DNA of 64,000 nt. Origin: Candidatus Accumulibacter contiguus (GTDB lineage: Bacteria > Pseudomonadota > Gammaproteobacteria > Burkholderiales > Rhodocyclaceae). Where the stretch lies: the NCBI RefSeq assembly GCF_012940005.1, contig NZ_SPMX01000018.1, positions 80,902-144,901 of the forward strand, read 5' to 3'. The stretch's first letter is position 1; every line of letters starts with the position of its first letter. The translations under genes and the position numbers were made by a program. Shown here piece after piece: positions 20,801-33,404 of this stretch. Under the pieces are notes generated by a model. It made no database searches. It had not been told where the DNA came from and saw only the letters and a list, made by a program, of their open reading frames with translations.

Positions 20801-22255
20801 CTACATCAGAACGATGTCGTATTGCTCCTGCGAGTAGCTGGGCTCCGCCTGCAGTGAAATCGGTTTGCCGATGAAGTCGGAGAGCATGGCCAGACCTTGC
20901 GATTCTTCGTCGAGAAAACGGTCGATCACCGCCTGGTTGCCGAGCACGCGATATTCGCGCGCGTTGAACTGGCGGGCTTCGCGCAGCAGTTCACGCAGGA
21001 TTTCGTAGCACACGGTGCGCGCCGTCTTGACCTCGCCACGCCCGCCACAGGTCGGGCACTCCTCACACAACACATGCGCGAGTGATTCGCGCGTCCGCTT
21101 GCGAGTCATCTCGACCAGGCCGAGCGCGGTGAAACCATTGACCGTCAGACGCGTATGGTCTCGCGCCAGCGCCTTGTTGAACTCACAGAGGACTGCGCTG
21201 CGATGCTCATCGTTCTCCATGTCGATGAAGTCGATGATGATGATGCCGCCGAGGTTGCGCAGGCGCAGTTGACGGGCGATCGTCTGTGCGGCTTCGAGAT
21301 TGGTCTTGAAGATGGTGTCGTCGAAGTTGCGCACGCCGACGAAGCCGCCGGTATTGACGTCGATGGTGGTCATTGCCTCGGTCTGGTCGATGATCAGGTA
21401 ACCCCCGGACTTCAGATCGACACGGCGCGCGAGGGCTTTCTGAAGTTCGTCTTCGACACCATGCAGGTCGAACAGCGGCCGTTCGCCGACGTAGTGTTCC
21501 AGCAAGGGAGCGACCGTCGGAGTGTACTCGGCGGCAAAACTGGTGAGCCGCTGGAAGTTTTCGCGCGAGTCGATGACGATACGCGCAGTCTCGGGGTTGA
21601 CGAAATCGCGCAATACCCGCTGTGCCAGCGATAATTCCTGGTAGAGCAATGAAGGGGGTGCGGCGGTGGTCGATTGCGTCAGGATGTCGCGCCAGAGTTT
21701 GCGCAAGTACTCGATATCCTTGGCGAGTTCGGCCTCGCTCGCGCTCTCTGCCATGGTGCGGACGATGAAGCCACCAGCTTCGTCACCGGGTACCAGGCGA
21801 CCCAGTTTCTCGCGCAGCGCTTCACGTTCGGACTCCCTCTCGATACGCTGCGAGATCCCGATGTGCTTGTCCTGCGGCAGGTAGACCAGCATGCGCCCGG
21901 CGATCGATACCTGCGTAGACAGGCGTGCCCCCTTGCTGCCCATCGGGTCCTTGATCACCTGCACGAGGATGCTCTGCCCCTCGAACAACAGGCGCTCGAT
22001 CGGTCGCAGCGGTTCGTCACTCGGACGCGGCTCACGGATGTCGGCAACGTGCAGAAAGGCGGTACGGCCGAGGCCAATGTCGATGAACGCCGATTGCATG
22101 CCCGGCAGGATGCGAACGATGCGTCCCACGTAGACATTGCCAACGAAGCCACGACTGGCGCTGCGTTCGATGTGCAATTCCTGCACGACGCCCTGATGCA
22201 TGACAGCGACGCGCGTTTCCTGCGGAGTAAAGTTGATCAGGATCTCTTCGGACAT
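20801..22255 (-). CDS. rng: Ribonuclease G
   Basis: A 484-aa endoribonuclease of the RNase E/G family, used in 16S rRNA 5' maturation and mRNA decay. The S1 RNA-binding domain is at about 35-125 (GNVYVGRIVRILPGMQSAFI). The catalytic domain carries the metal-binding IDVNTGGFVG and IIIIDFIDMENDEHR segments, and the Zn-link cysteines are in CPTCGGRG near residue 405. The length equals E. coli RNase G; there is no RNase E scaffold tail. The ATG 22255 start (MSEEILINFTPQETRVAV) fits the family. It is divergent from trhP with only 29 bp between starts. Confidence 0.95.
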   Translation of the reverse strand: MSEEILINFTPQETRVAVMHQGVVQELHIERSASRGFVGNVYVGRIVRILPGMQSAFIDIGLGRTAFLHVADIREPRPSDEPLRPIERLLFEGQSILVQVIKDPMGSKGARLSTQVSIAGRMLVYLPQDKHIGISQRIERESEREALREKLGRLVPGDEAGGFIVRTMAESASEAELAKDIEYLRKLWRDILTQSTTAAPPSLLYQELSLAQRVLRDFVNPETARIVIDSRENFQRLTSFAAEYTPTVAPLLEHYVGERPLFDLHGVEDELQKALARRVDLKSGGYLIIDQTEAMTTIDVNTGGFVGVRNFDDTIFKTNLEAAQTIARQLRLRNLGGIIIIDFIDMENDEHRSAVLCEFNKALARDHTRLTVNGFTALGLVEMTRKRTRESLAHVLCEECPTCGGRGEVKTARTVCYEILRELLREARQFNAREYRVLGNQAVIDRFLDEESQGLAMLSDFIGKPISLQAEPSYSQEQYDIVLM

Positions 22256-22284
22256 GGCGGAGCAATCTGGAGAATGAGAGTAAG

Positions 22285-23673
22285 ATGAGGTTTTCCACAT
22301 TCTACCCCGTGACGAAGCTCTCCCGGATGCCTGTCTCCGCAGCCTTGACCTCTCGCGACTTGCCGATCCCTGAATTGCTCGCTCCCGCAGGTTCGTTGAC
22401 GATGTTGCGCACCGCCCTGGCTTTCGGTGCCGACGCCGTCTATGCGGGCCAGCCGCGCTACAGCCTGCGGGTACGCAACAACGATTTCGGAGACCTCGCC
22501 ATCCTCGGCACGGCCATCGGCGAGGCACACGCTGCCGGCAGGAAGCTCTATGTGGTCAGCAACGTCCTGCCGCACAATCGCAAGGTCCACAGCTACCTGA
22601 ACGACATGGCGCCGGTCGTCGCGCTCCAGCCTGACGCCCTGATCATGGCCGACCCCGGGTTGATCGACCTGGTGCGCGAGACCTGGCCGCAGATGGCGGT
22701 CCATCTCTCGGTGCAGGCCAATACCGTCAACTTTGCGGCGGTTCGTTTCTGGCAGAAGCTCGGCATCCAGCGGATCATCCTTTCTCGCGAGCTGTCGCTC
22801 GACGAAATCGCCGAGATTCGTCAGGAATGTCCCGACATCGAGCTCGAAGTCTTCGTGCACGGCGCGCTCTGCGTCGCATATTCAGGGCGATGCCTGCTTT
22901 CCGGATACTTCAACCATCGTGACCCCAATCAGGGCACCTGCACCAACTCGTGTCGCTGGGATTACCAGCTCAAGGCGGGCAAGGCGGATGCGGCCGGCGA
23001 TGTGCATGCCGCCCAGCCACCCAATTCAGCGAATTTTCCAGATCAACGACCAGGGAAGGGTGTCTGGCTGCTCGAGGAGAAAGAGCGGCCGGGCGAACTG
23101 ATGCCGATCGAAGAGGATGAGCATGGTACCTACCTCATGAACTCGAAGGATCTGCGGGCCGTCGAGCATGTCCGGCGCCTGACCGAGATCGGTGTCGACT
23201 CGCTGAAGATCGAGGGGCGCACCAAGTCTCCCTACTATGTGGCGCGCACCGTACAGGTCTATCGCCGCGCCATCGATGATGCCCTTGCCGGGCGGCCATT
23301 CGACCCCGGACTGCTCGGCGAACTCGAGGGACTGGCCAATCGCGGCTACACCGACGGTTTCTACCAGCGTCACCACGAACACGAGATGCAGAACTACCTG
23401 CGCGGCCATTCCGAATCGGGGCGCAGTCTCTACGTCGGCGACGTCCTGGCATGGGATGCTCCGCACCAGTTGGCGCTGATCGACGTGAAAAACCGCTTTT
23501 CGGTGGGTGATCGCCTCGAGATCATCCATCCCTCGGGCAACCACCGGCTGACTCTCGAACGGATGCAGCACATCGACGGCAACGAAATTCGCGTCGCCCC
23601 CGGCAACGGCCATCGCGTGTGGATTCCCCTGCCGAGCGAATTGCCGGGAGCGCTGCTGGCGCGCTTCATCTAG
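22285..23673 (+). CDS. trhP: U32 peptidase-family tRNA hydroxylation protein TrhP (YegQ)
   Basis: A 462-aa protein closely matching E. coli YegQ/TrhP, which with prephenate-derived chemistry makes 5-hydroxyuridine at wobble position 34 of tRNA. Landmarks: ELLAPAGSLTMLRTALAFGA, VYAGQPRYSLRVRNNDF, the U32 signature EVFVHGALCVAYSGRCLLSG with conserved Cys, and YLMNSKDLRAVEHV. The C-terminal beta barrel is present. ATG 22285 gives a 20-residue extension; ATG 22327 is an alternative closer to the family length. Confidence 0.9.
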   Translation: MRFSTFYPVTKLSRMPVSAALTSRDLPIPELLAPAGSLTMLRTALAFGADAVYAGQPRYSLRVRNNDFGDLAILGTAIGEAHAAGRKLYVVSNVLPHNRKVHSYLNDMAPVVALQPDALIMADPGLIDLVRETWPQMAVHLSVQANTVNFAAVRFWQKLGIQRIILSRELSLDEIAEIRQECPDIELEVFVHGALCVAYSGRCLLSGYFNHRDPNQGTCTNSCRWDYQLKAGKADAAGDVHAAQPPNSANFPDQRPGKGVWLLEEKERPGELMPIEEDEHGTYLMNSKDLRAVEHVRRLTEIGVDSLKIEGRTKSPYYVARTVQVYRRAIDDALAGRPFDPGLLGELEGLANRGYTDGFYQRHHEHEMQNYLRGHSESGRSLYVGDVLAWDAPHQLALIDVKNRFSVGDRLEIIHPSGNHRLTLERMQHIDGNEIRVAPGNGHRVWIPLPSELPGALLARFI

Positions 23674-23684
23674 ATTCCACCACC

Positions 23685-24776
23685 ATGTCTGCTCCTCATC
23701 TCTTCGTCGACATCTCGGCACACGGCTTTGGCCACCTGGCGCAAACGGCACCGGTACTCAACCGCCTGCTGCAGCAGCTACCGGATCTCTGCATCACCAT
23801 CCGCAGCGATCTGCCCACAGCCAGAATGCAAGCCCGCCTTGTGGCTCCTTTCCAGCATCTGGCGGACAGCAGCGACTTCGGTTACGTAATGCATGACGCG
23901 ATGTGCGTCGACCTGGCCGCGACGGCCCGCGCCTACCGCAAACAGCATGCCGACTGGGAAGCCCGCGTGGACCGTGAAGCGCGTCTTCTCGCCGAACTAC
24001 AACCCCGACTGGTGCTCAGCGATGTCGCCTACCTGCCGCTGGCTGGCGCCGCACGCGCCGGTATCCCCGCGCTGGCGATGTGCTCACTCAACTGGGCCGG
24101 GCTGTTTGCCCATTTCTTCGCCAGCGAGCCCTGGGCGGCACCGATTCTTCATCAGATGCTGGCGGCGTACAACGGGGCCGAATGCTTCCTGCGACTGACT
24201 CCCGGCATGGCCATGAGCGAACTGTCGCGGGTCCGCCGCATCGGCCCGGTTGCCACTCTCGGCAATGACTGTCGCCAGGCCGTGCGTGCGCAACTGCGCT
24301 GTGCCAGTGACGAGCGACTGGTCCTGATCGCCTTCGGCGGCGTCAGCCAGCGGCTACCGCTTGCCGACTGGCCACAGATCGCCGGCGTACGCTGGCTGGT
24401 CCCGCAAGACTGGCAGGTGGCACAGTCCAACTGCAGCGATTTCGAGCCGCTCGACCGACCGATGACCGACCTCCTGTGCTCGGTCGACGCGGTGATCGCC
24501 AAACCCGGCTACGGCACATTCAGCGAAGCCGCCTGCAACGGCACACCGCTCCTCTACGTGCGGCGGCACGACTGGCCGGAACAGGATTGCCTGATCGACT
24601 GGCTGCACAAGCACGCCCGCTGCCGGGAAATCAGTGGAGCGGACCTGCTGGCTGGCCGTCTCCAGGAGGCGCTTGATCTCTTGTGGCAGCAAACGGCACC
24701 ACCACTGCCCTTGCCATCGGGCACGCAAGAAGCGGCTGCCGCACTACTGCCGTGGCTGACGGTGGATGACGGTTAA
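23685..24776 (+). CDS. Glycosyltransferase-like protein (MurG/GT1 fold)
   Basis: A 363-aa protein with a two-Rossmann layout. The N-terminus reads HLFVDISAHGFGHLAQTAPV, a GH-x-GH-like loop typical of GT-B enzymes; the C-terminal domain has LVLIAFGGVSQRLPLADWP and KPGYGTFSEAACNGTPLLYV, the nucleotide-sugar-binding region of MurG-like transferases. No signal peptide or membrane helix. Acceptor and sugar are unknown. It starts 11 bp after trhP, so they may share a transcript, though no functional link is evident. The start is ATG 23685; a longer ORF from 23619 overlaps trhP and is unlikely. Confidence 0.7.
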   Translation: MSAPHLFVDISAHGFGHLAQTAPVLNRLLQQLPDLCITIRSDLPTARMQARLVAPFQHLADSSDFGYVMHDAMCVDLAATARAYRKQHADWEARVDREARLLAELQPRLVLSDVAYLPLAGAARAGIPALAMCSLNWAGLFAHFFASEPWAAPILHQMLAAYNGAECFLRLTPGMAMSELSRVRRIGPVATLGNDCRQAVRAQLRCASDERLVLIAFGGVSQRLPLADWPQIAGVRWLVPQDWQVAQSNCSDFEPLDRPMTDLLCSVDAVIAKPGYGTFSEAACNGTPLLYVRRHDWPEQDCLIDWLHKHARCREISGADLLAGRLQEALDLLWQQTAPPLPLPSGTQEAAAALLPWLTVDDG

Positions 24777-24980
24777 GCATCCGGGCGGGACCAGGACTGT
24801 CCTTCGACGTAAGAAATGGCGTTAAATTGCCCGAATCTTGCACATGACCGAAATCTCGGGCATGATTCGTGCCCATGCTCGAGATGACATTCCACTTTCC
24901 ACTTGCCAAGCCGATCCGTGTTCACTGCCTAGAGGCCTCGCCAAAGACTCGCCGCCCCGCGGCGGGTAATCCGCGCTAGG

Positions 24981-26489
24981 ATGGGGCTCGGCTCGCTGTT
25001 TCGCGTCATCCGCGAGCTCCTGCACGAGGCGGCACGCGACCTCGCACCCACCCTGATCGTGGTCGTCCTGTTCCAGGTGTTTTTCATCCAGCGCATGCCC
25101 GACAGCCCGGCTGCGCTGATCGGCGGCTTTGCCATCGTCCTCCTCGGCCTGGCGCTTTTCGTCAAGGGGCTCGACGCGGCGATCTTTCCGGCCGGCGAGA
25201 CGATGGCTTTCGACTTTGCCCGCCGCGGTTCGTTTCTCTGGCTGGTCTTCTTTGCCTTCTTCGTTAGTTTTGCCTCGGTGGCCGCTGAACCGGCGCTGAT
25301 GGCTGTCGCCTACAAGGCGGAGGCGGTATCGGGGGGCAGCATGGGTGCGCTGACGCTGCGCATGGTGGCGGCGCTCGGTGTCGGCATTGCGGTGGTATTC
25401 GGCGTCTGGCGTATCGTCCTCGGCCACTCGATCGGCAATTACCTGATTCCGGGTTATCTGCTGGTCATCGCGCTGACCGTTTTCTCGCCGCCACAACTGG
25501 TCGGTCTGGCCTTTGATTCCGGCGGCGTCGTGGCCTCGACGGTCACCGCACCGCTGCTCACCGCGCTTGGGGTGGGTCTGGCGACCAGCATCCGAGGACG
25601 CAATCCGTTGCTCGACGGTTTTGGTCTGATTGCCTTCGGTGCGCTGGCACCGATGATCATCATTCAGCTCTACGGCATCCTGTTCTTTGTTCCCGCAGCG
25701 GCCGGCACGCCGGTGGTGGTGATGCCGAGCGACGATCAGCATCAGTATGCGCTTCTCGAGATGCTGATCGATTTCGGGATCATGGTCAGGAACCTGCTGC
25801 CGATCATCGCCGTCGTGCTGTTCTCGAGCTTCGTCATCCTGCGCCGCCCGCTGGCCGATCCCAGGGGCCTGGCGGTCGGCATGTTGCTGGTGGCGGTCGG
25901 CCTGTTCATGTTCGACGAGGGGCTGCAGGTCGGTCTCTTCCCGCTTGGTGACGAGATGACCAACGGCCTGATGCGCGACGGGGTCGCAATGTGGGCGGTC
26001 TACCTCTACGGCTTCCTGATCGGTTTTGCGACGACCATGGCCGAGCCGGCGCTGATCGCGCTATCGATCAAGGCCGACGAGGTCAGCCTCGGGCAGCTCA
26101 AGGGTTTCTGGCTGCGCTGTCTGGTCTCGGTGGGTGTGGGCATCGGCATCGTCATCGGCTGTGCACGCATCATCGACGGCACCAACATCGCCTACTGGCT
26201 GATTCCCGGCTACCTGCTGGTGCTGGCGATGACCAAATTTGCCCCCGACTTCATCGTGCCGATCGCCTATGACTGCGGTGGCGTGACCACCTCGACGGTG
26301 ACCGTGCCGCTGGTGACCGCACTCGGCGTCGGGCTGGCCGAGCGAACGCCGGGCCGCGACCCGATGATCGATGGTTTCGGTCTGATTGCTTTCGCCTCGC
26401 TGCTGCCAATGGTCATTGTCATGTCCTATGGCATGCTGGCCAGCTGGTTGCTGCGGTCGAGAAAATCTGTCAAGGAGAACGGCCAATGA
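24981..26489 (+). CDS. DUF1538 multi-spanning membrane protein
   Basis: A 502-aa integral membrane protein made of two homologous halves (about 15-245 and 255-490). Each has FAxFVSFASVAAEPALMAVA- or YGFLIGFATTMAEPALIALS-like and GNYLIPGYLLVIALT/AYWLIPGYLLVLAMT motifs, plus a repeated FDSGGVVASTVTAPL/YDCGGVTTSTVTVPL. The internal duplication with conserved polar GG(V)xxSTVT signatures suggests an inverted or tandem transporter fold; the substrate is unknown. Its stop overlaps the start of a PII-like gene (ATGA), suggesting the soluble partner regulates it, as GlnK does AmtB. Confidence 0.8.
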   Translation: MGLGSLFRVIRELLHEAARDLAPTLIVVVLFQVFFIQRMPDSPAALIGGFAIVLLGLALFVKGLDAAIFPAGETMAFDFARRGSFLWLVFFAFFVSFASVAAEPALMAVAYKAEAVSGGSMGALTLRMVAALGVGIAVVFGVWRIVLGHSIGNYLIPGYLLVIALTVFSPPQLVGLAFDSGGVVASTVTAPLLTALGVGLATSIRGRNPLLDGFGLIAFGALAPMIIIQLYGILFFVPAAAGTPVVVMPSDDQHQYALLEMLIDFGIMVRNLLPIIAVVLFSSFVILRRPLADPRGLAVGMLLVAVGLFMFDEGLQVGLFPLGDEMTNGLMRDGVAMWAVYLYGFLIGFATTMAEPALIALSIKADEVSLGQLKGFWLRCLVSVGVGIGIVIGCARIIDGTNIAYWLIPGYLLVLAMTKFAPDFIVPIAYDCGGVTTSTVTVPLVTALGVGLAERTPGRDPMIDGFGLIAFASLLPMVIVMSYGMLASWLLRSRKSVKENGQ

Positions 26490-26833
26490 AATTCTCTGCA
26501 GTGGTGCTGATCGTTCCGGACGAAGACGAAAACCGGGCGGTCGAAATTCTCAAGGAGGCCGGAGCCACCGGCATCACCATCCTCAAGGGCAAGGGTCTAC
26601 GGCACAACGAGCGCAAGACCTTTCTCGGTCTGGGTCTGGAGCGCAAAGAGTCCTTGCTGTTGAGTGTGGTCGAGAAGCAGCTCTCGATGCGCATCCTGAG
26701 GGCGGTCAAGATGCAGATGAAGATGGACCTGCCGGGAGGAGGACTGGCCTTTTCGCTGCCGCTGGGCAGCGTGGTCGGCATCGGCCTGGCGCAAATGCAG
26801 GCCTTCCAGCGCGAAGTCGAGGAAGATCTGTGA
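26486..26833 (+). CDS. PII-like regulatory protein
   Basis: A 115-aa protein with the ferredoxin-like PII fold pattern: MKFSAVVLIVPDEDENRAVE, ILKEAGATGITILKGKG at the start of the T-loop region, and a C-terminal LPLGSVVGIGLAQM. The canonical T-loop tyrosine and full 2-oxoglutarate signature of GlnB/GlnK are absent, so it belongs with PII-like proteins. It overlaps the DUF1538 gene by four bases, the arrangement of a membrane transporter and its soluble regulator. The ligand is unknown; adenine nucleotides are typical of the superfamily. Confidence 0.75.
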   Translation: MKFSAVVLIVPDEDENRAVEILKEAGATGITILKGKGLRHNERKTFLGLGLERKESLLLSVVEKQLSMRILRAVKMQMKMDLPGGGLAFSLPLGSVVGIGLAQMQAFQREVEEDL

Positions 26834-26897
26834 GCACCTCGCGGCCATCGGCCCGTCCCCTGGCTGATCACGATCATGGACTAAAGGAGAGTTTGCC

Positions 26898-27293
26898 ATG
26901 TTGGTTGCCGGAATCATGAAGACAAACGTTATCACCATCAGCCCGCTGGCCACCGTTCGGGAGGCACTGCTGCTGATGAAGAAGAGCGGCGTCAAGTCGC
27001 TGGTGGTCGACAAACGCCATTCGGGCGACGCCTACGGCCTGATCGCTTACCGCGACGTCGCCAGGGCGGTGATCGCCGAGGATGGCGACATCGATCTGCT
27101 CAATGTCTATGACATTGCCCAGAAACCGGCGCTGCAGGTTTCCCAGCATCTCGAAATCCGCTATCTGGCGCGACTGATGATCCAGTATGCGGTGAAAAAT
27201 GTGCTGGTCATCGACAACAACGAGTTGCAGGGCTTCGTCTCGGATACCGATGTGGTGAGTCATCTGATCGATCGCGCCAGCAGCGGCCGCTAA
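26898..27293 (+). CDS. CBS-domain pair protein
   Basis: A 131-aa protein that is essentially a Bateman module. CBS1 spans about residues 5-65 (IMKTNVITISPLATVREALL; VVDKRHSGDAYGLIAYRDV) and CBS2 about 72-128 (YLARLMIQYAVKNVLVIDNN; GFVSDTDVVSHLID). Such stand-alone modules bind adenosine nucleotides and regulate partners. AAAGGAGAG lies before the ATG. It lies 64 bp after the PII-like gene and likely belongs to the same transcript, giving a second possible nucleotide sensor in the cluster. Confidence 0.85.
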   Translation: MLVAGIMKTNVITISPLATVREALLLMKKSGVKSLVVDKRHSGDAYGLIAYRDVARAVIAEDGDIDLLNVYDIAQKPALQVSQHLEIRYLARLMIQYAVKNVLVIDNNELQGFVSDTDVVSHLIDRASSGR

Positions 27294-27306
27294 CACCCAG
27301 AGCGTG

Positions 27307-27744
27307 ATGGAAAAAATCATTCACCGCTATTCGGCTTTCTTTCCGCGCTGGTGCCAGGCTTTTGGTGACCATGTACCTGACCCCGGCGGCGAAGGGCGTG
27401 CGGTCGAGTGGCTGGTGGGCGCCGACTGCGTCGGCGTGATCGTCCTGCCCGAGATTCGGCACCTGTTGATGCACGAACTACTCGGCCAGCACCAGCCCGA
27501 ACTCGAGTTCCGCCAGAGGTCCGTGCGACTGAACCGGCGGGACTACGATGAGGTCGAGGTTCTCGGGCATCCCGGCTATACGGCCTTGCGCGAACTGCTG
27601 CTCGGCAGTGAAGCGGCGCACATGTTCCTGACCTACCATCTGATCTACCCACCCGGAACCCGGATCATCACCGTCTCACGCAAGCCGCCGCTCGGGCTGC
27701 TCTACAAGGAAATGGCCCCGCTGCCGATTACCGTTTGCGAGTGA
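27307..27744 (+). CDS. Hypothetical protein of the DUF1538/PII cluster
   Basis: A 145-aa soluble protein (MEKIIHRYSAFFPRWCQAFG; VEWLVGADCVGVIVLPEIRH; MFLTYHLIYPPGTRIITVSR). No domain recognised, no signal peptide. A GTG at 27304 just upstream could also initiate. Its 3' end overlaps the convergent antiporter gene by 43 bp. Position suggests co-transcription with the CBS gene 13 bp upstream. Confidence 0.6.
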   Translation: MEKIIHRYSAFFPRWCQAFGDHVPDPGGEGRAVEWLVGADCVGVIVLPEIRHLLMHELLGQHQPELEFRQRSVRLNRRDYDEVEVLGHPGYTALRELLLGSEAAHMFLTYHLIYPPGTRIITVSRKPPLGLLYKEMAPLPITVCE

Positions 27745-29072
27745 ATCACCGGCGGTGGATCGACCTGCGACCCCTGCTGAGCCGCGTGCGGTCGCCAGCC
27801 GAGAATCAGGAGCAGCGCGAAGAAGCCGGCGACGTAACCCAGCGGAACATGCCAGCCATGCAGCAGCCACTTGCCGGCCGACCTGGCCTCGGGGAAGAGA
27901 TTGGCCAGTGCCACCCCGGCCGACGATCCGAACCACAGCATCGAGCCACCGAAACCGACGGCGAAGGCAAGAATGCCCCAGTCGTAGCCCCCCTGCTTCA
28001 GGGCCAGCGCGGTGAGCGGGATGTTGTCGAACACCGCCGAAACGAAGCCCAGGCCCAGCGCCGTCTGCCACGAAGCCAGCGGCAACTTCTCGACCGGCAT
28101 CATCGACGCACAACTCACCAGCGCCAGCAGAAAAACGGATCCTTTGATGGCCTCCGGAAGCAGGCTCCATTCCGGCTTGCGCAGCGGCACCGCCAGCAGC
28201 AGTGCCACCCATACCGCCACGCCGAGAAAGGGAAAATGGTCAGCGGCCTCCGGGAACCGGATGTTGACCGTGACATTGGTGCCGATCGCGGTCCCCAGCA
28301 TGAAACCGACGATGCCGACCCGCGCCCAGTCGACATGTTGCGCACCCTGCAGGTTGCGCACGATCGGCTGGTGAGCGTGCTGTTGCAGCGCAGCCGGGAT
28401 GCCGGACACCACCAGCGCCACCGCCGACGCGAGAAAGGCATGCGTGACGTCGAGCGGGCTGACGCCGGCGATCCACATCATGGTGGTGGTCGTGTCACCG
28501 ATCACGCTCCAGGCGCCACCGGCGTTCGAAGCGGCAACGATGGCCGCCAGGTAGCCGACATGCAGCCGGCGCTTGAAGACGCTGGCCGCCACGGTGCCAC
28601 CGATCAGCGCTGCCGCGATGTTGTCCAGGAAGCTCGAAAGAAGCCAGATGATGGCGAGCAACACGAAAGGCCCCAGCCAGCTCTCGGGTAGCAGTCTCGG
28701 CAGCACTTCCGGCACGCCGCTGTCCTCGAAGTGACGCGCCAGCAGCGCGAAGCCAACCAGCAGGCAGAGCAGGTTGACCAGCAGCACCCATTCGTGCGCC
28801 ATGTGGCCGGCAAAGCCGCCGAGCCCCGCGCCGGTCCTGAAGCCGGTGACGGCGATCTTGTACAGGGCGATCACCACCAGCCCGGTCAAAGCCACCTGGA
28901 GCACCCGATGGTGGAACAACGCGACGCCCAAAAGCGTCGCCGCGAACAGGATGAACTCCACAGGGATGCCGAGCACCTCCGAGCCGTCGGCAGCCTGCAC
29001 CGGCAATGCCTGGCAGCAGACAGCCAAAGTCAGCCACTGCGTATTCATGAGTCCACCGAGCGTCCTGCGCAT
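27702..29072 (-). CDS. NhaD/ArsB-type ion transporter
   Basis: A 456-aa membrane protein of the ion transporter (IT) superfamily with about 12 spans and two internal signature regions: SSFLDNIAAALIGGTVAASV with SNAGGAWSVIGDTTTTMMWI in the first half, and SAVFDNIPLTALALKQGGYD with FGGSMLWFGSSAGVALANLF in the second. The DN(I) and G-D-T motifs are those of NhaD-type Na+/H+ antiporters and related carriers. Substrate (Na+ or a carboxylate) is not certain. The start at 29072 has an excellent GAGGAG site; ATG 29048 is weaker. It is transcribed away from the universal stress protein gene. Confidence 0.75.
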   Translation of the reverse strand: MRRTLGGLMNTQWLTLAVCCQALPVQAADGSEVLGIPVEFILFAATLLGVALFHHRVLQVALTGLVVIALYKIAVTGFRTGAGLGGFAGHMAHEWVLLVNLLCLLVGFALLARHFEDSGVPEVLPRLLPESWLGPFVLLAIIWLLSSFLDNIAAALIGGTVAASVFKRRLHVGYLAAIVAASNAGGAWSVIGDTTTTMMWIAGVSPLDVTHAFLASAVALVVSGIPAALQQHAHQPIVRNLQGAQHVDWARVGIVGFMLGTAIGTNVTVNIRFPEAADHFPFLGVAVWVALLLAVPLRKPEWSLLPEAIKGSVFLLALVSCASMMPVEKLPLASWQTALGLGFVSAVFDNIPLTALALKQGGYDWGILAFAVGFGGSMLWFGSSAGVALANLFPEARSAGKWLLHGWHVPLGYVAGFFALLLILGWRPHAAQQGSQVDPPPVIHSQTVIGSGAISL

Positions 29073-29222
29073 TACTCTCCTCTGTCGAGAAAAACCACTG
29101 TGGTAAGCTTGTCGCCTACACTCGGAACAGTCAAGCATTTTCAGGTCGCCTGCTGGCCTGTGCACCGTCAGTTGCCACGCCGTACTGGTTCCGACAGTCG
29201 CAAACCGCCTGAGGAATTCGCC

Positions 29223-29648
29223 ATGCGCAAGGTTCTTGTCCCAGTCGACGGTTCAGCCGCCGCCCATCACGCCGTGCGGCACATCATCGCACTGACTGGC
29301 ACCTGCCCCTCGATTGAGGTCGTCCTGCTCAATGTTCAACCGGAAATCGACGACTGGAGTGTACGCCGCCTCCTCAAGAAGGAAGAGGTCGAGGCAATGG
29401 AGGAATGCCGGGGTGGCGACACCTTGCAGCAGTACCGCGAGGTGCTCGATGCTGCCGGCGTCCGCTTTACGCCGCTGGTGGAGATCGGCCCTGCCGCCGA
29501 GATCATCGCCAGAGTCGCCAGGGAGCAGGGATGCGACGGCATCGTCATGGGCAGCCGCGGCCTGGGCGCAGTGTCCAGCGTACTGCTCGGCTCGGTCAGT
29601 AGCCGGGTGCTCGAGATCACCGACCTGCCGGTCACGCTGCTGAAATAG
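29223..29648 (+). CDS. Universal stress protein (UspA family)
   Basis: A 141-aa single Usp domain: KVLVPVDGSAAAHHAVRHII at the N-terminus and the ATP-binding loop GSRGLGAVSSVLLGSVSSRV (G-2x-G-9x-G-S) near residue 115. Proteins of this ATP-binding class respond to energy and osmotic stress. GAGGA precedes ATG 29223; a long ORF from 28731 in the same frame is antisense noise over the antiporter gene. It lies between two ion carriers, in keeping with a stress-linked cluster. Confidence 0.9.
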   Translation: MRKVLVPVDGSAAAHHAVRHIIALTGTCPSIEVVLLNVQPEIDDWSVRRLLKKEEVEAMEECRGGDTLQQYREVLDAAGVRFTPLVEIGPAAEIIARVAREQGCDGIVMGSRGLGAVSSVLLGSVSSRVLEITDLPVTLLK

Positions 29649-29965
29649 CCTTGAGACGGCTACGCTGATGCGCCGCCAGCCGCTCTGCGCAGGCAATCTT
29701 CATGTCATGTTTCTTGCCCTTAACAAGCCAAACCAGGCCAAATCCTTCAGCATCTCAGCAAAGTCGGAGAGAACGGCTCCGCAATCGCCGCAGGCCGTGA
29801 GCGCCCTGCAGATCGGGCGTTGATGCCCGGGTTGCAGGCAGCAAATTCGGGATTGACAGCGGCTTCCACGGCTCGGCATACTCCGGCCGTGCCGACGAAT
29901 CTCCTGTCCATGCCGGGCAGGCGGAAGAAGATTCGCGGCCTCCGTCTCTACCCAAAGGGGGTTTC
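29649..29965. other. Non-coding gap before the CBS-carrier operon
   Basis: 317 bp without a convincing gene. Small ORFs have no family likeness. The right third carries the promoter listed at 29853-29882. No hairpin followed by a T-run was found after the usp gene. Confidence 0.5.
29853..29882 (+). promoter_or_regulatory. Sigma-70-type promoter upstream of the CBS-carrier operon
   Basis: TTGACA at 29853-29858 (perfect -35) is followed after 18 bp by CATACT at 29877-29882 (four of six against TATAAT). The start codon of the CBS gene is 84 bp downstream. It is seen in sequence; activity is not tested. Confidence 0.5.
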
Positions 29966-30451
29966 ATGCACCACCATCCTGACGCCTTGTGCCGGTCGAT
30001 CATGTCGGCACCGCCGGCCGTGCTCAAGCCGACCGACTCCATGTCATTGGCCCTGCAGACCATGGTCGAACAACGGCTACCGGCACTGCCGGTCGTCGAC
30101 AGCGACTACCGCTACCTCGGCATGCTGCCACGCAGCCGGCTGATTGCACTCGCCATGCCGCGAGTCATCTCGCACCAGGACGAGCAACATCCCTTGAGCC
30201 ACCTCCTGCAGGTCGGCTTCATCCAGGATACGCTGGCCGACCTGCAGGAGCGGGTGGATGCCGTCGCCAACGATCCCGTGAGCCGCCACCTGGACACCGA
30301 GGTGCCGGTTCTTGATCCCGACACGCCGCTGATGAACGCCATGCTCTTCCTCCACCGGCAGCGAAACGTCCTGCCCGTCGTCGAGAACGGGAAACTGCTC
30401 GGTATCGTTTCAGTCTGGGATGTTCTCGCCCGCATCGGGAGGGTCAAGTAA
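29966..30451 (+). CDS. CBS-domain protein coupled to a carrier gene
   Basis: A 161-aa protein with two CBS motifs: residues about 10-60 (SIMSAPPAVLKPTDSMSLAL; LPVVDSDYRYLGMLPRSRL) and 105-158 (VPVLDPDTPLMNAMLFLHRQ; NVLPVVENGKLLGIVSVWDV). The stretch between them is longer than in the CBS protein at 26898. AAGGGGG sits six bases before the ATG. Its TAA overlaps the ATG of the carrier gene (TAATG), so it probably gates or senses for that transporter. Confidence 0.85.
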   Translation: MHHHPDALCRSIMSAPPAVLKPTDSMSLALQTMVEQRLPALPVVDSDYRYLGMLPRSRLIALAMPRVISHQDEQHPLSHLLQVGFIQDTLADLQERVDAVANDPVSRHLDTEVPVLDPDTPLMNAMLFLHRQRNVLPVVENGKLLGIVSVWDVLARIGRVK

Positions 30452-31786
30452 TGCACACAGCAGCTTCCGGGGTCATTTTCGGCCTCAATCCCTTGTGGCT
30501 GGCGACCGTGGTGATGATCGTCACCTATGGCGTAATCATCAGCGAACGGCTGAACCGCTCGATCATCGCATTGCTTGGTGCAATGCTGATGATCATGTTC
30601 GGCCTGCTGACTCAGGAGCAGGCCGTCGCCGGCGTCGATTTCAATACCATCGGCCTGCTCGTCGGGATGATGGTCATCGTCTCGATCACCCGCAAGTCGG
30701 GGGTTTTCGAGTATCTGGCGATCTGGTCGGCAAAACTGGTGAAGGCCAACCCGGCGGGCATCCTGGCCATGCTTGCCGTGGTCACCGCGGTCGTTTCCGC
30801 CTTGCTCGACAATGTCACCACCGTACTCCTCGTCGTTCCGGTGACGCTGGTCATCACCGAGGCGCTGAAAGTCAATCCCTATCCCTTCCTGTTCTCGCAG
30901 ATCCTGGCGTCGAACATCGGTGGTACAGCGACGCTGATCGGCGATCCACCGAACATCCTGATCGGCGGCCAGGTCGGTTTGTCGTTCAACGACTTCGTGA
31001 TTCACCTCTCGCCGGTGATCGTCGTGATCCTCCTCGTGCATGTCATCTCGATTCACCTCATCTGGGGACGCAGCATGGCCTCAACGGCCGAACTGCGCGC
31101 GCGGGTCATGGCCTTCGACGAAAGCGAGGCGATCACCGATTCGCGACTGCTGAAACGGGCTTCACTGGTGCTGGCCCTGGTGATCGTTGCCTTCGTCATG
31201 GCACGGTCGCTGGGGCTGGAATCGGGCACCATCGGCATGGCGGGTGCGGCGCTGCTGTTGATGCTCGACAACCTCGGCAAGTCGGCCGAGCACCAGTCGG
31301 AGAACGTCGTCAAGGTGTACAACGAGATCGAATGGATCACGATCTTTTTTTTTCGTCGGGTTGTTCATCGTGATTGCCGGTGTCGAGCACGCCGGTCTGC
31401 TGCGCCTTCTCGCCGACAAGCTGCTCGCCGCCACCGGCGGCGATTTCAAGGTCACGGGCTACAGCATCCTCTGGTCATCGGCGTTCCTGTCGGCGATTGT
31501 CGACAATATCCCGTTCGTGGCCACGATGATTCCCCTGATCAAATCGATGGCGCCTGCATTCGGCGGCGCGGACGCGCTGATGCCGCTCTGGTGGTGCCTT
31601 TCGCTGGGCGCCTGTCTCGGCGGCAACGGCACGCTGATCGGCGCCAGCGCCAACCTGACCGTCGCCGGCATCGCCGAGCGCAACGGCATTCCGTTCCGCT
31701 TCATGACCTACACCAGGATCGCCTTTCCGCTGATGCTGATCCATGTCGCGATCTGCAACGTCTACGTCTGGTGGCGGTATTTCTGA
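30451..31786 (+). pseudogene. NhaD/ArsB-type carrier, frameshifted at a T9 run
   Basis: The first frame (30451 to about 31350) encodes an IT-superfamily carrier: MIVTYGVIISERLNRSIIAL, SALLDNVTTVLLVVPVTLVI, SNIGGTATLIGDPPNILIGG, ending ...NEIEWITIFFF. The second frame (about 31355-31786) continues it as VGLFIVIAGVEHAGLLRLLA, SAIVDNIPFVATMIPLIKSM and GNGTLIGASANLTVAGIAER. The break is at T9 (31345-31353), where eight Ts would keep frame and give a 444-residue protein with both signature repeats. A sequencing or assembly error is likely; true mutation or slippage is possible. The gene is coupled to the CBS gene before it. Related carriers move Na+, arsenite or dicarboxylates. Confidence 0.8.
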
Positions 31787-31844
31787 ACCACCGGTTCCGC
31801 CGCCGGTCTGCAGCGAAAGACCGCGGTGGAATCGGTCACCAGGA

Positions 31845-33404
31845 TCAACCGGATCGGGCAGCGCTTCTTGGGATCACCGTATCTGAGGACGGCACGCCGG
31901 ACAGGGTGGTGTCGTCGATTCTGAAGAAGGCCATGAGATCCTGGAGCTGACTGGCCTGCCCCGCCATCTCCTCGGCGGTGGCAGCGAGTTGTTCGGATGC
32001 CGAAGCGTTCTGCTGTGTGGCCTGATTCAATTGTCCCAGGGCGCCGTTGATCTGCATCACGCCGCTGGATTGTTCCGAGGAGGCGGCGGCGATCTCCTGC
32101 ACCAGTTCCGAAGTCTGGCGAATAGTGGGCACCATCTGCGTCAGCAGATTCCCGGCGAGATCGGCCTGTTTCACCGAGGATTTGGCCAGGTTGCCGATTT
32201 CCTGCGCAGCGACTTGCGAACGTTCCGCCAGTTTACGCACTTCCGCGGCGACGACGGCAAAACCCTTGCCATGCTCGCCGGCACGGGCCGCCTCGATCGC
32301 AGCATTGAGGGCCAGCAGATTCGTCTGATAGGCAATATCGTCGATGATGCTGATCTTGCCGGCAATGCTCTTCATGTCCTCGACCGTGCAGCCGACAGCC
32401 GTGGCGCCTTCAGCCGCCTCACTGGCCGCCTTGGCGGCAAGCTTGCCGGTGAGTTGGGCATTTTCCTTGTTCTGCGCGATGGACGCGCTCATCTCCTGCA
32501 TGGACGCGGTGGTTTCCTCGACCGACGCGGCTTGCTCGCTGGACGAATGCGCAAGGGAACTGGCTGTCGCGGAGACCTGTCCCGCCGCGTTGCTCAGGCT
32601 GTCGGCCGCGGTGTGCACCTCGCCGATAATCTGTGTCAGCTTGCCCTGCATCTCCGCCAGCGCCCGCAGCAGATCCCCGGTTTCGTCCTGCGCGCCGGTC
32701 TGGATGGCAGTACCCAGCTCGCCGCCGGCAATCATGCTGGCCGTTCGCACGGCTTCGACCAGAGGAGCGACTATTCTGCCGGCCAATACCAGCGCGATCG
32801 ACACGGCCACGACCAGGCCCAGCAGAAACAGGCCGAGATTGGTGGCGATCAAACTCGACACGCGCTTGTTCGCTGCGGAAACCATTTCGTCCCCTTTGCT
32901 CTTCTGCTCTTCGAGAAACTTGCTGAGTGCAGCGTCGATTTCCAGGAAGCGCTTGTCTGCCGCCTGCATCATGCCGGTGCCCATGGCAATGTCGGATTGC
33001 GCCATGTCGATGGCCTGCACCACATTCTTGCGGTAACGCGCCAAGGGCTCCTCAAGTGCGGCAATCGCCTTCTTTTCGTCCTCATCGAGGTCGCTGCGTT
33101 CGCGGAATTTCTTGAGCAACTGTATCGCGCCATCGGCGTGACCCATGATTACAGCGGCGTCTTTGGCAATGCGCTCCTCATTGAAATTGCCCAACATGGT
33201 GAACAATCGGTAGGCCGCAATGTTCGCGTCGAGCAATCTGCCACGGCTGTCATTGACGGCGGCGAGGTGCTGCATGCCTTTTACCCCTATGGCATCGAGC
33301 GTTTGCTGCATCGAGCGCAGACCGAAGTAGCTGAAGATGCCCAGAAGCAGCATCATGGTCAGCGGCACGAGCGAGGAAACGACGATTTTTGCCTTGATCT
33401 TCAT
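31845..33404 (-). CDS. Methyl-accepting chemotaxis protein
   Basis: A 519-aa chemoreceptor. TM1 is at about residues 7-27 ([20 protein letters not shown]), a helical periplasmic bundle at 28-185 (4HB/HBM-like), TM2 at about 188-210 ([20 protein letters not shown]) and HAMP at 211-265. The signalling domain carries the hairpin tip [20 protein letters not shown] with [20 protein letters not shown]. No CheB/CheR-docking pentapeptide is seen at the C-terminus. The start ATG 33404 has GGAG upstream; a longer ORF from 33467 lacks one. It lies 80 bp downstream of a secreted Cache protein gene in the same direction. Confidence 0.9.

What the first reader, a model, noticed from the sequence alone, without database searches (positions are those of the whole stretch)
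24981..27744. DUF1538 membrane protein paired with a PII-like protein and a CBS module
A duplicated membrane protein of unknown substrate is coupled by ATGA to a PII-like protein lacking the usual T-loop tyrosine, followed by a CBS pair and an unknown protein. The layout mirrors AmtB-GlnK and SbtA-SbtB, suggesting a nucleotide-gated transporter of unknown cargo.
Basis: inference. Interest (0 to 1): 0.7.

Follow-up and report, generated by a model that had tools for sequence, protein, structure and literature searches.

The report
PII-gated sodium/proton antiporter operon
Next to a membrane protein whose family includes a known sodium-or-potassium-for-proton exchanger, this bacterium encodes a dedicated PII-like signalling protein, a pairing that recurs in many other bacteria, so the small protein likely switches the transporter on and off; if so, PII signalling would reach from nitrogen and carbon uptake into salt and pH balance.

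Summary
DUF1538 (502 aa, two halves 48% identical), a PII-like protein (ATGA overlap, no tyrosine at all), a CBS pair and an orphan protein run in one direction. The four-gene block is in 24 of 28 genomes of the genus; two others carry a different DUF1538-PII set, two lack both. Across sampled Pseudomonadota a PII-like gene lies beside DUF1538 in 39 of 42 readable genera. Five of five opened plasmid records (Clostridia, Alphaproteobacteria) show the same pair. The cargo is not unknown for the family: DUF1538 proteins UmpA and UmpB of Halomonas form a Na+(Li+,K+)/H+ antiporter that works in E. coli from umpAB alone (PMC5484666). The window protein is a fused UmpA-UmpB relative keeping their six shared charged residues in both halves. 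I read this as an antiporter with its own PII-type regulator. Nucleotide gating is not shown: the canonical B-loop lysine and first C-loop arginine are missing in 174 of 174 PII-like sequences aligned, and the genome has no detected diadenylate cyclase. PII relatives also occur elsewhere (beside argB; once before a K+/H+ antiporter). My searches of held papers found no report linking PII to DUF1538.

The parts
24981..26489 (+). DUF1538 membrane protein, fused UmpA-UmpB relative, predicted Na+(K+)/H+ antiporter
   Evidence: PF07556 twice, 402 bits; UmpA 415 and UmpB 348 bits, below equivalog cut-offs 490 and 500; halves 48% identical; AlphaFold pLDDT 83.7, pTM 0.84
26486..26833 (+). PII-like protein with a short T-loop (KTFLGL motif), predicted regulator of the antiporter
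   Evidence: P-II 27.6 bits against 25; PII fold, best Foldseek E 1.2e-07 to GlnK1; ATGA overlap with DUF1538
26898..27293 (+). CBS-domain pair, predicted adenosine-ligand sensor of the same operon
   Evidence: PF00571 twice, 65.9 bits; same position after PII in 24 of 24 genus blocks and in 75 of the 77 named loci with PII by the script's count
27307..27744 (+). 145-aa protein of unknown family, genus-level addition to the block
   Evidence: in 24 of 24 genus blocks; no Pfam, NCBIfam or PADLOC match; one PDB hit at E 0.38

Best explanation
The genes at 24981-27744 form a conserved block, predicted to be one operon, whose DUF1538 protein is a fused relative of the UmpAB antiporter that likely exchanges Na+ (or Li+, K+) for protons and is likely switched by the PII-like protein encoded in overlap with it. 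Shown here: gene order, overlap, conservation, PII fold, duplicated transporter, retained charged residues (E103, R127, R144, D179, R207, D212 and their counterparts in the second half). Known from print: two DUF1538 proteins from Halomonas form a Na+(Li+,K+)/H+ antiporter, active in E. coli when umpAB alone is expressed. Inferred: the PII-like trimer docks on the cytoplasmic face and its shortened, hydrophobic T-loop (KTF[F/L]GL) blocks or locks the transporter, as GlnK does to AmtB and SbtB to SbtA; because umpAB alone is active, the PII-like protein is a regulator, most likely an inhibitor, not an essential subunit. Inferred: the signal is an adenosine ligand, read by the CBS pair and perhaps weakly by the PII-like protein, which in most relatives keeps pocket residues (T29, G37, G87, G89) but has lost the triphosphate clamp; this would shut antiport when energy or pH status demands it.
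For: Same four-gene order in 24 of 28 same-genus genomes; two more carry another DUF1538-PII set; the two without the PII also lack DUF1538. PII beside DUF1538 in 39 of 42 readable genera, out of 43 with DUF1538 among 213 sampled. Named loci: 77 of 80 have PII downstream (at most 162 bases from the DUF1538 end); the other 3 are cut off by the locus end; 75 of 77 also show CBS. One is Vibrio xiamenensis (L090), a species that Meng et al. place in their UmpAB cluster. Plasmid search with the PII-like protein: 5 of 5 records also carry DUF1538. UmpAB antiport and activity of umpAB alone. Charged residues kept. A distant relative of this PII precedes a K+/H+ antiporter gene in G036, a single case.
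Against: The window protein scores below both NCBIfam equivalog cut-offs. Fold search found no significant match for DUF1538, so antiport has no structural support. Three of 42 genera have DUF1538 without an adjacent PII (L194, L278, L153/L279); in two of them (G144, G175) a PII-CBS pair lies on another contig. PII relatives also sit in other contexts: of 41 places read in the converse test, 18 are beside DUF1538, 16 beside SH3 and argB-like genes, 2 beside a dusB-like gene, 3 are PII-CBS pairs without DUF1538, 2 have no recognised neighbour. Five genomes with a PII relative (G082, G176, G188, G204, G239) have no DUF1538 match. Canonical nucleotide contacts are missing. [quoted passage not shown]
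Confidence: 0.6

Rival explanations
1. The DUF1538 protein of this clade carries another cargo than cations; the PII-like protein still gates it. The characterised UmpAB is the split, halophile type and the fused type may have changed substrate.
For: Window protein below both equivalog cut-offs, although a whole-protein score adds both halves; fused and split types differ; the genus is known from wastewater (recalled), where Na+ export may press less.
Against: The six charged residues shared by UmpA and UmpB are kept in both halves, and E103, R144, D179, E355 and D431 are invariant in 41 of 41 sequences; split V. xiamenensis subunits, from a species inside the published UmpAB cluster, also fall below the cut-offs (367 and 336), while the fused L046 passes the UmpA one (507 of 490), so the cut-offs do not separate the types.
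Confidence: 0.2
2. The PII-like and CBS proteins are a soluble signalling pair that is co-transcribed with the transporter but acts elsewhere, for example on metabolism.
For: PII relatives beside SH3 and argB-like genes (16 places) and a PII-CBS pair away from DUF1538 (3 places); five genomes with a PII relative but no DUF1538 match.
Against: DUF1538 is the largest single context read (18 of 41), and seen from the DUF1538 side the pair is nearly constant (39 of 42 genera); two genus genomes lack both; five opened plasmid records keep the pair with no CBS or argB gene listed beside it (the plasmid gene table is incomplete).
Confidence: 0.15
3. The PII-like protein is an ordinary GlnB/GlnK that serves nitrogen control.
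For: Pfam P-II above cut-off.
Against: The genome has two canonical PII genes elsewhere; the T-loop tyrosine, the B-loop GDGK and the C-loop arginines are absent from the window protein; none of the neighbouring genes scanned (20801-30451) is an ammonium transporter.
Confidence: 0.03

Closest known systems
UmpAB Na+(Li+,K+)/H+ antiporter, Halomonas zhaodongensis (PMC5484666)
   Same: Two homologous DUF1538 units per system, same set of shared charged residues
   Different: Window form is one fused protein, below equivalog scores; the paper does not mention a PII (0 occurrences of 'PII' or 'P-II')
AmtB-GlnK
   Same: Transporter gene with a PII gene beside it; PII fold; best Foldseek hits are GlnK1 structures
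   Different: No T-loop tyrosine, T region 20 instead of 25 residues in 164 of 174, no GDGK in 174, no arginine 101 in 174; transporter of another Pfam family
SbtA-SbtB
   Same: PII-like protein paired with a membrane transporter; Foldseek also hits SbtB structures
   Different: SbtA is a Na+-dependent bicarbonate transporter; the CGPxGC R-loop described for SbtB (passage) is not in the window protein, which has no cysteine
PstA/DarA c-di-AMP PII-like proteins
   Same: PII-like fold tied to ion homeostasis (from print)
   Different: No diadenylate cyclase found in this genome; PstA has a long B-loop and a short T-loop (passage), whereas here the B-loop region is as long as in the genome's own GlnB
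CPII of Thiomonas (5d4p)
   Same: PII-like, Foldseek E 3.1e-06
   Different: Carboxysome association (recalled); a DUF1538 partner was not looked for

Membership tests
DUF1538 (PF07556) | Pfam gathering score | tested here: met
   402.4 bits against 22.6, two domains
UmpAB antiporter (NF041627, NF041628) | Score over NCBIfam equivalog cut-off | tested here: not met
   415.1 of 490 and 348.3 of 500; V. xiamenensis subunits also below, 367 and 336; fused L046 above for UmpA, 507
UmpAB antiporter (NF041627, NF041628) | Six charged residues shared by UmpA and UmpB (three R, two D, one E) | tested here: met
   Same make-up at matching places in both halves of the window protein; make-up from the paper, whose exact positions I did not see
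UmpAB antiporter (NF041627, NF041628) | Na+(Li+,K+)/H+ antiport | not testable with these tools
   needs a vesicle assay
Canonical PII (GlnB/GlnK) | Pfam P-II score and PII fold | tested here: met
   27.6 bits against 25; Foldseek E 1.2e-07
Canonical PII (GlnB/GlnK) | T-loop tyrosine 51 (uridylylation site, recalled) | tested here: not met
   no Y in the protein; column 51 is a gap in 174 of 174
Canonical PII (GlnB/GlnK) | B-loop GDGK and C-loop R101, R103 (phosphate contacts, recalled) | tested here: not met
   GDGK 0 of 174; position 90 I, L, V, M, F or gap in 174 of 174; R101 0 of 174; R103 3 of 174
PII-transporter pair (AmtB-GlnK, SbtA-SbtB type) | Conserved adjacency of transporter and PII | tested here: met
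   39 of 42 readable genera
PII-transporter pair (AmtB-GlnK, SbtA-SbtB type) | Direct complex and ligand-dependent inhibition | not testable with these tools
   no multimer prediction or bench assay available
c-di-AMP-binding PII-like (PstA/DarA) | c-di-AMP made in the cell | tested here: not met
   PF02457 in 0 of 1 own genome (98.68% complete); 11 of 14 controls ring
Known secondary-transporter folds | Significant structural match | tested here: inconclusive

The most novel reading that the evidence does not exclude
A separate branch of PII signalling governs cation/proton antiport: a PII subfamily with a KTF[F/L]GL T-loop that has given up the ATP phosphate clamp plugs UmpAB-type antiporters, while the CBS protein beside it supplies the adenosine-ligand sensing; this would make PII proteins controllers of Na+, K+ and pH balance across Pseudomonadota and in Clostridia.
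Probability: 0.3. Interest if true: 0.8.

Novelty: new variant of a known kind. Interest (0 to 1): 0.62.

Why it matters
PII proteins are known to control ammonium, nitrate, urea and bicarbonate transport; the passages I saw of a 2023 review list no cation/proton antiporter among their targets (PMC10710835). A PII-controlled antiporter would tie the cell's metabolic state to Na+, K+ and pH balance, and the E. coli KNabc assay already used for UmpAB makes the idea directly testable. It would also give a biological partner to many proteins now annotated only as 'P-II family nitrogen regulator', and would fit the listing of DUF1538 among genes that predict growth pH (PMC13255231, one passage).
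Full report
What is there. The window lies in a 5.02-Mb genome of 167 contigs. Four genes run in one direction at 24981-27744: a 502-aa DUF1538 protein, a 115-aa PII-like protein that overlaps it by ATGA, a 131-aa CBS pair and a 145-aa protein without known family. The two halves of the DUF1538 protein are 48% identical over 218 residues. The PII-like protein passes the Pfam P-II cut-off narrowly (27.6 against 25 bits) and contains no tyrosine. Close relatives are named Accumulibacter.

The cargo is not unknown for the family. Meng et al. 2017 (PMC5484666; abstract, sections 5, 6 and 10 and passages read) found that two DUF1538 proteins of Halomonas zhaodongensis, UmpA and UmpB, form a heterodimer with Na+(Li+,K+)/H+ antiport activity and rescue E. 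coli KNabc when umpA and umpB alone are co-expressed. NCBIfam's UmpA and UmpB models are the only hits of the window protein at E up to 1, but it stays below both equivalog cut-offs (415 of 490, 348 of 500; for a fused protein the score adds both halves). The cut-offs are narrow: the subunits of Vibrio xiamenensis, a species the paper places inside its UmpAB cluster, score 367 and 336, while the fused L046 passes the UmpA one with 507. The paper counts six charged residues shared by UmpA and UmpB (three R, two D, one E); the window protein has that make-up at matching places in both halves, and E103, R144, D179, E355 and D431 are invariant in 41 of 41 aligned sequences, two Clostridia included.

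Conservation within the genus. A PII-like search of 61 genomes (the window's own and 60 relatives) hit 29. Of 28 same-genus genomes, the window's own included, 24 have the block DUF1538-PII-CBS-fourth gene in this order (in L025 and L026 the DUF1538 or PII part is incomplete). G009 has separate umpA and umpB genes with PII and CBS (L028), G012 has a third type with PII (L030, L161), and G005 and G007 have neither DUF1538 nor the PII.

Conservation beyond. DUF1538 occurs in 126 of 398 sampled Pseudomonadota genomes and 43 of 213 genera; 0 of 14 control genomes. I read at least one DUF1538 neighbourhood for 42 of the 43 genera; in g177 it is cut off by a contig end (L164). A PII-like gene lies beside DUF1538 in 39 of 42: 30 of 30 loci L033-L062 (16 genera), 19 of 20 loci L180-L199 (20 further genera), and g1, g122, g129 and g181. 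The exceptions are g157 (L194), g167 (L278) and g197 (L153/L279). In G144 (g157) and G175 (g167) a PII-CBS pair lies on another contig (L265, L266); G303 (g197, 84% complete) is not among the genomes with a PII relative. Three genera outside that sample (g9, g10, g24) also have the pair. In 70 of the 75 the CBS start overlaps the PII end by 4 bases. CBS is an accessory: in the 19 PII-positive loci of L180-L199 it was found in 15, in L033-L062 within 23 of 30 short loci, and one DUF1538 type has two tandem PII genes and no CBS in the stretch read (L154-L158, L161).

Other phyla. On plasmids DUF1538 occurs in 9 records. I opened 5 of them, and in all 5 the next gene downstream is annotated 'P-II family nitrogen regulator': Chelativorans, Peptoclostridium, Methylocystis, Vescimonas and Paraclostridium. 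A search of the same collection with the window's PII-like protein hit 5 records, all 5 of which also carry DUF1538. The three Clostridial PII genes are about twice as long.

The converse is less exclusive. A search with a distant PII relative (L032) hit 104 of 398 genomes; five of these (G082, G176, G188, G204, G239) have no DUF1538 match. Of the 30 loci given, 17 lie beside DUF1538 (the window's own among them), 12 beside an SH3-domain gene and an amino-acid-kinase gene that looks like argB (often with an ETF-QO gene, or a dusB-like gene named by eye), and 1 beside the dusB-like gene at a contig edge. I fetched 11 more places, chosen by eye because their contigs were not DUF1538 contigs: 1 is beside a DUF1538 fragment, 4 are in the argB-SH3 context, 1 beside the dusB-like gene, 3 are PII-CBS pairs without DUF1538, 2 have no recognised neighbour (two further stretches, L276 and L277, re-read known places). 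I did not read the remaining places. The query itself, in G036, lies 133 bases before a K+/H+ antiporter gene (NCBIfam 646 bits against a cut-off of 309). This is a single case, and that PII has no Pfam P-II match of its own, though it was found from the window's PII at E 3.1e-10.

The PII-like protein. The AlphaFold model has the PII fold (pLDDT 83.4, T-loop tip under 50; best Foldseek E 1.2e-07 to GlnK1, further hits SbtB and CPII). On 174 distinct sequences aligned with the genome's own canonical PII, the GDGK motif is absent in all, position 90 is I, L, V, M, F or a gap in all, arginine 101 is absent in all and arginine 103 in 171, column 51 is empty in all, and the T region is 20 instead of 25 residues in 164; T29 (163), G37 (151), G87 (155) and G89 (169) are kept; 130 of 174 carry [KR]TF[FLM]G[LI]. 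The roles of these positions are recalled. So the pocket framework is largely kept and the phosphate clamp is lost: nucleotide gating in the canonical way is unlikely, and a smaller adenosine ligand, another ligand, or sensing by the CBS partner are open. Among the CBS relatives the second site keeps G in 125, S or T in 108 and D or N in 101 of 139 rows, gaps included; the full motif GhhS/TxxDh (recalled as adenosine-binding) was found by strict pattern in only 39 of 138 in the second half and 9 of 138 in the first, so adenosine binding by CBS is a guess too. The genome has two canonical PII genes elsewhere and no diadenylate cyclase match.

The transporter model. DUF1538 gave a confident model (pLDDT 83.7, pTM 0.84) with no significant match in the PDB. 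This neither supports nor excludes a known fold.

Mechanism. I commit to a cation/proton antiporter with a dedicated PII-type regulator. Steps shown: conserved pairing, PII fold, UmpAB relationship. Steps inferred: one transcript, antiport by the window protein, docking of PII on it, inhibition (because umpAB alone is active in E. coli), and adenosine-ligand sensing through CBS. [quoted passage not shown]

Novelty. Searches of the held PMC library for DUF1538 (5 papers), UmpAB with antiporter (7), PII-like with antiporter, CBS domain and operon (57 with three of four, 20 listed), PII-like with DUF1538 (0), PII-like with genomic context terms (21, 20 listed), PII-like, antiporter and SbtB (7), UmpA/UmpB (20), and PII-like with proton antiporter (13) gave no listed title or abstract start that links PII to DUF1538. 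In all 5 papers that hold the word DUF1538 I searched for PII and P-II: no mention of the protein (PMC5484666, PMC13255231, PMC5996927, PMC6055358, PMC7221264; the one 'PII' in PMC7221264 is part of a sequence motif); nor in two papers that name UmpAB homologues (PMC12093952, PMC10030654). A 2024 review of PII-like proteins (Selim and Alva) is not held, so prior mention there or in other papers not held cannot be excluded. I rate this a new variant of a known kind: a PII-transporter pair with a new class of transporter.

Noticed in passing
L277:1993-4267 (also L032:3-1800): A distant relative of this PII (KTFFGLTF loop) lies 133 bases upstream, same strand, of a CPA1-type K+/H+ antiporter gene in G036.
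   Followed up: partly
L235, L238-L240, L242-L246, L251, L253, L254, L268, L269, L273, L275: A PII-like paralogue sits beside an SH3-domain gene and an argB-like gene, often with an ETF-QO or dusB-like gene, in a set of Pseudomonadota, several of which also have the DUF1538-linked PII.
   Followed up: partly
L265-L267: PII-CBS pair without DUF1538 beside it; in L266 the upstream ORF looks like malic enzyme (by eye). G144 and G175 keep DUF1538 on another contig without PII; in G215 that place is cut off.
   Followed up: partly
L154-L158, L161: A third DUF1538 type is followed by two tandem PII-like genes, with no CBS in the stretch read.
   Followed up: no
window 30451-31950: CitMHS/ArsB/NhaB-like transporter ORF whose frame appears to break at a run of T near 31346-31355; may be a sequencing error. 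It follows a CBS pair (29966-30451) and a universal stress protein.
   Followed up: no
window 27702-29165: NhaD-like protein on the minus strand (73 bits, far below the NhaD cut-off of 577), convergent with the block; not found in the roughly 0.6 kb read beyond the block in other genus genomes.
   Followed up: partly
window 27307-27744: 145-aa protein strongly conserved in the genus (58 invariant columns of 145 in 15 sequences) but without any recognised family.
   Followed up: partly
phage records MT837261, MT835770, MT839021, MT835548, OR847559: DUF1538 reading frames in short unannotated records labelled phage, perhaps bacterial DNA.
   Followed up: no
L121 (G452): Record labelled Polarisedimenticolaceae draws what look like the Pseudomonadota genomes as its phylum, so the label may be wrong.
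   Followed up: no
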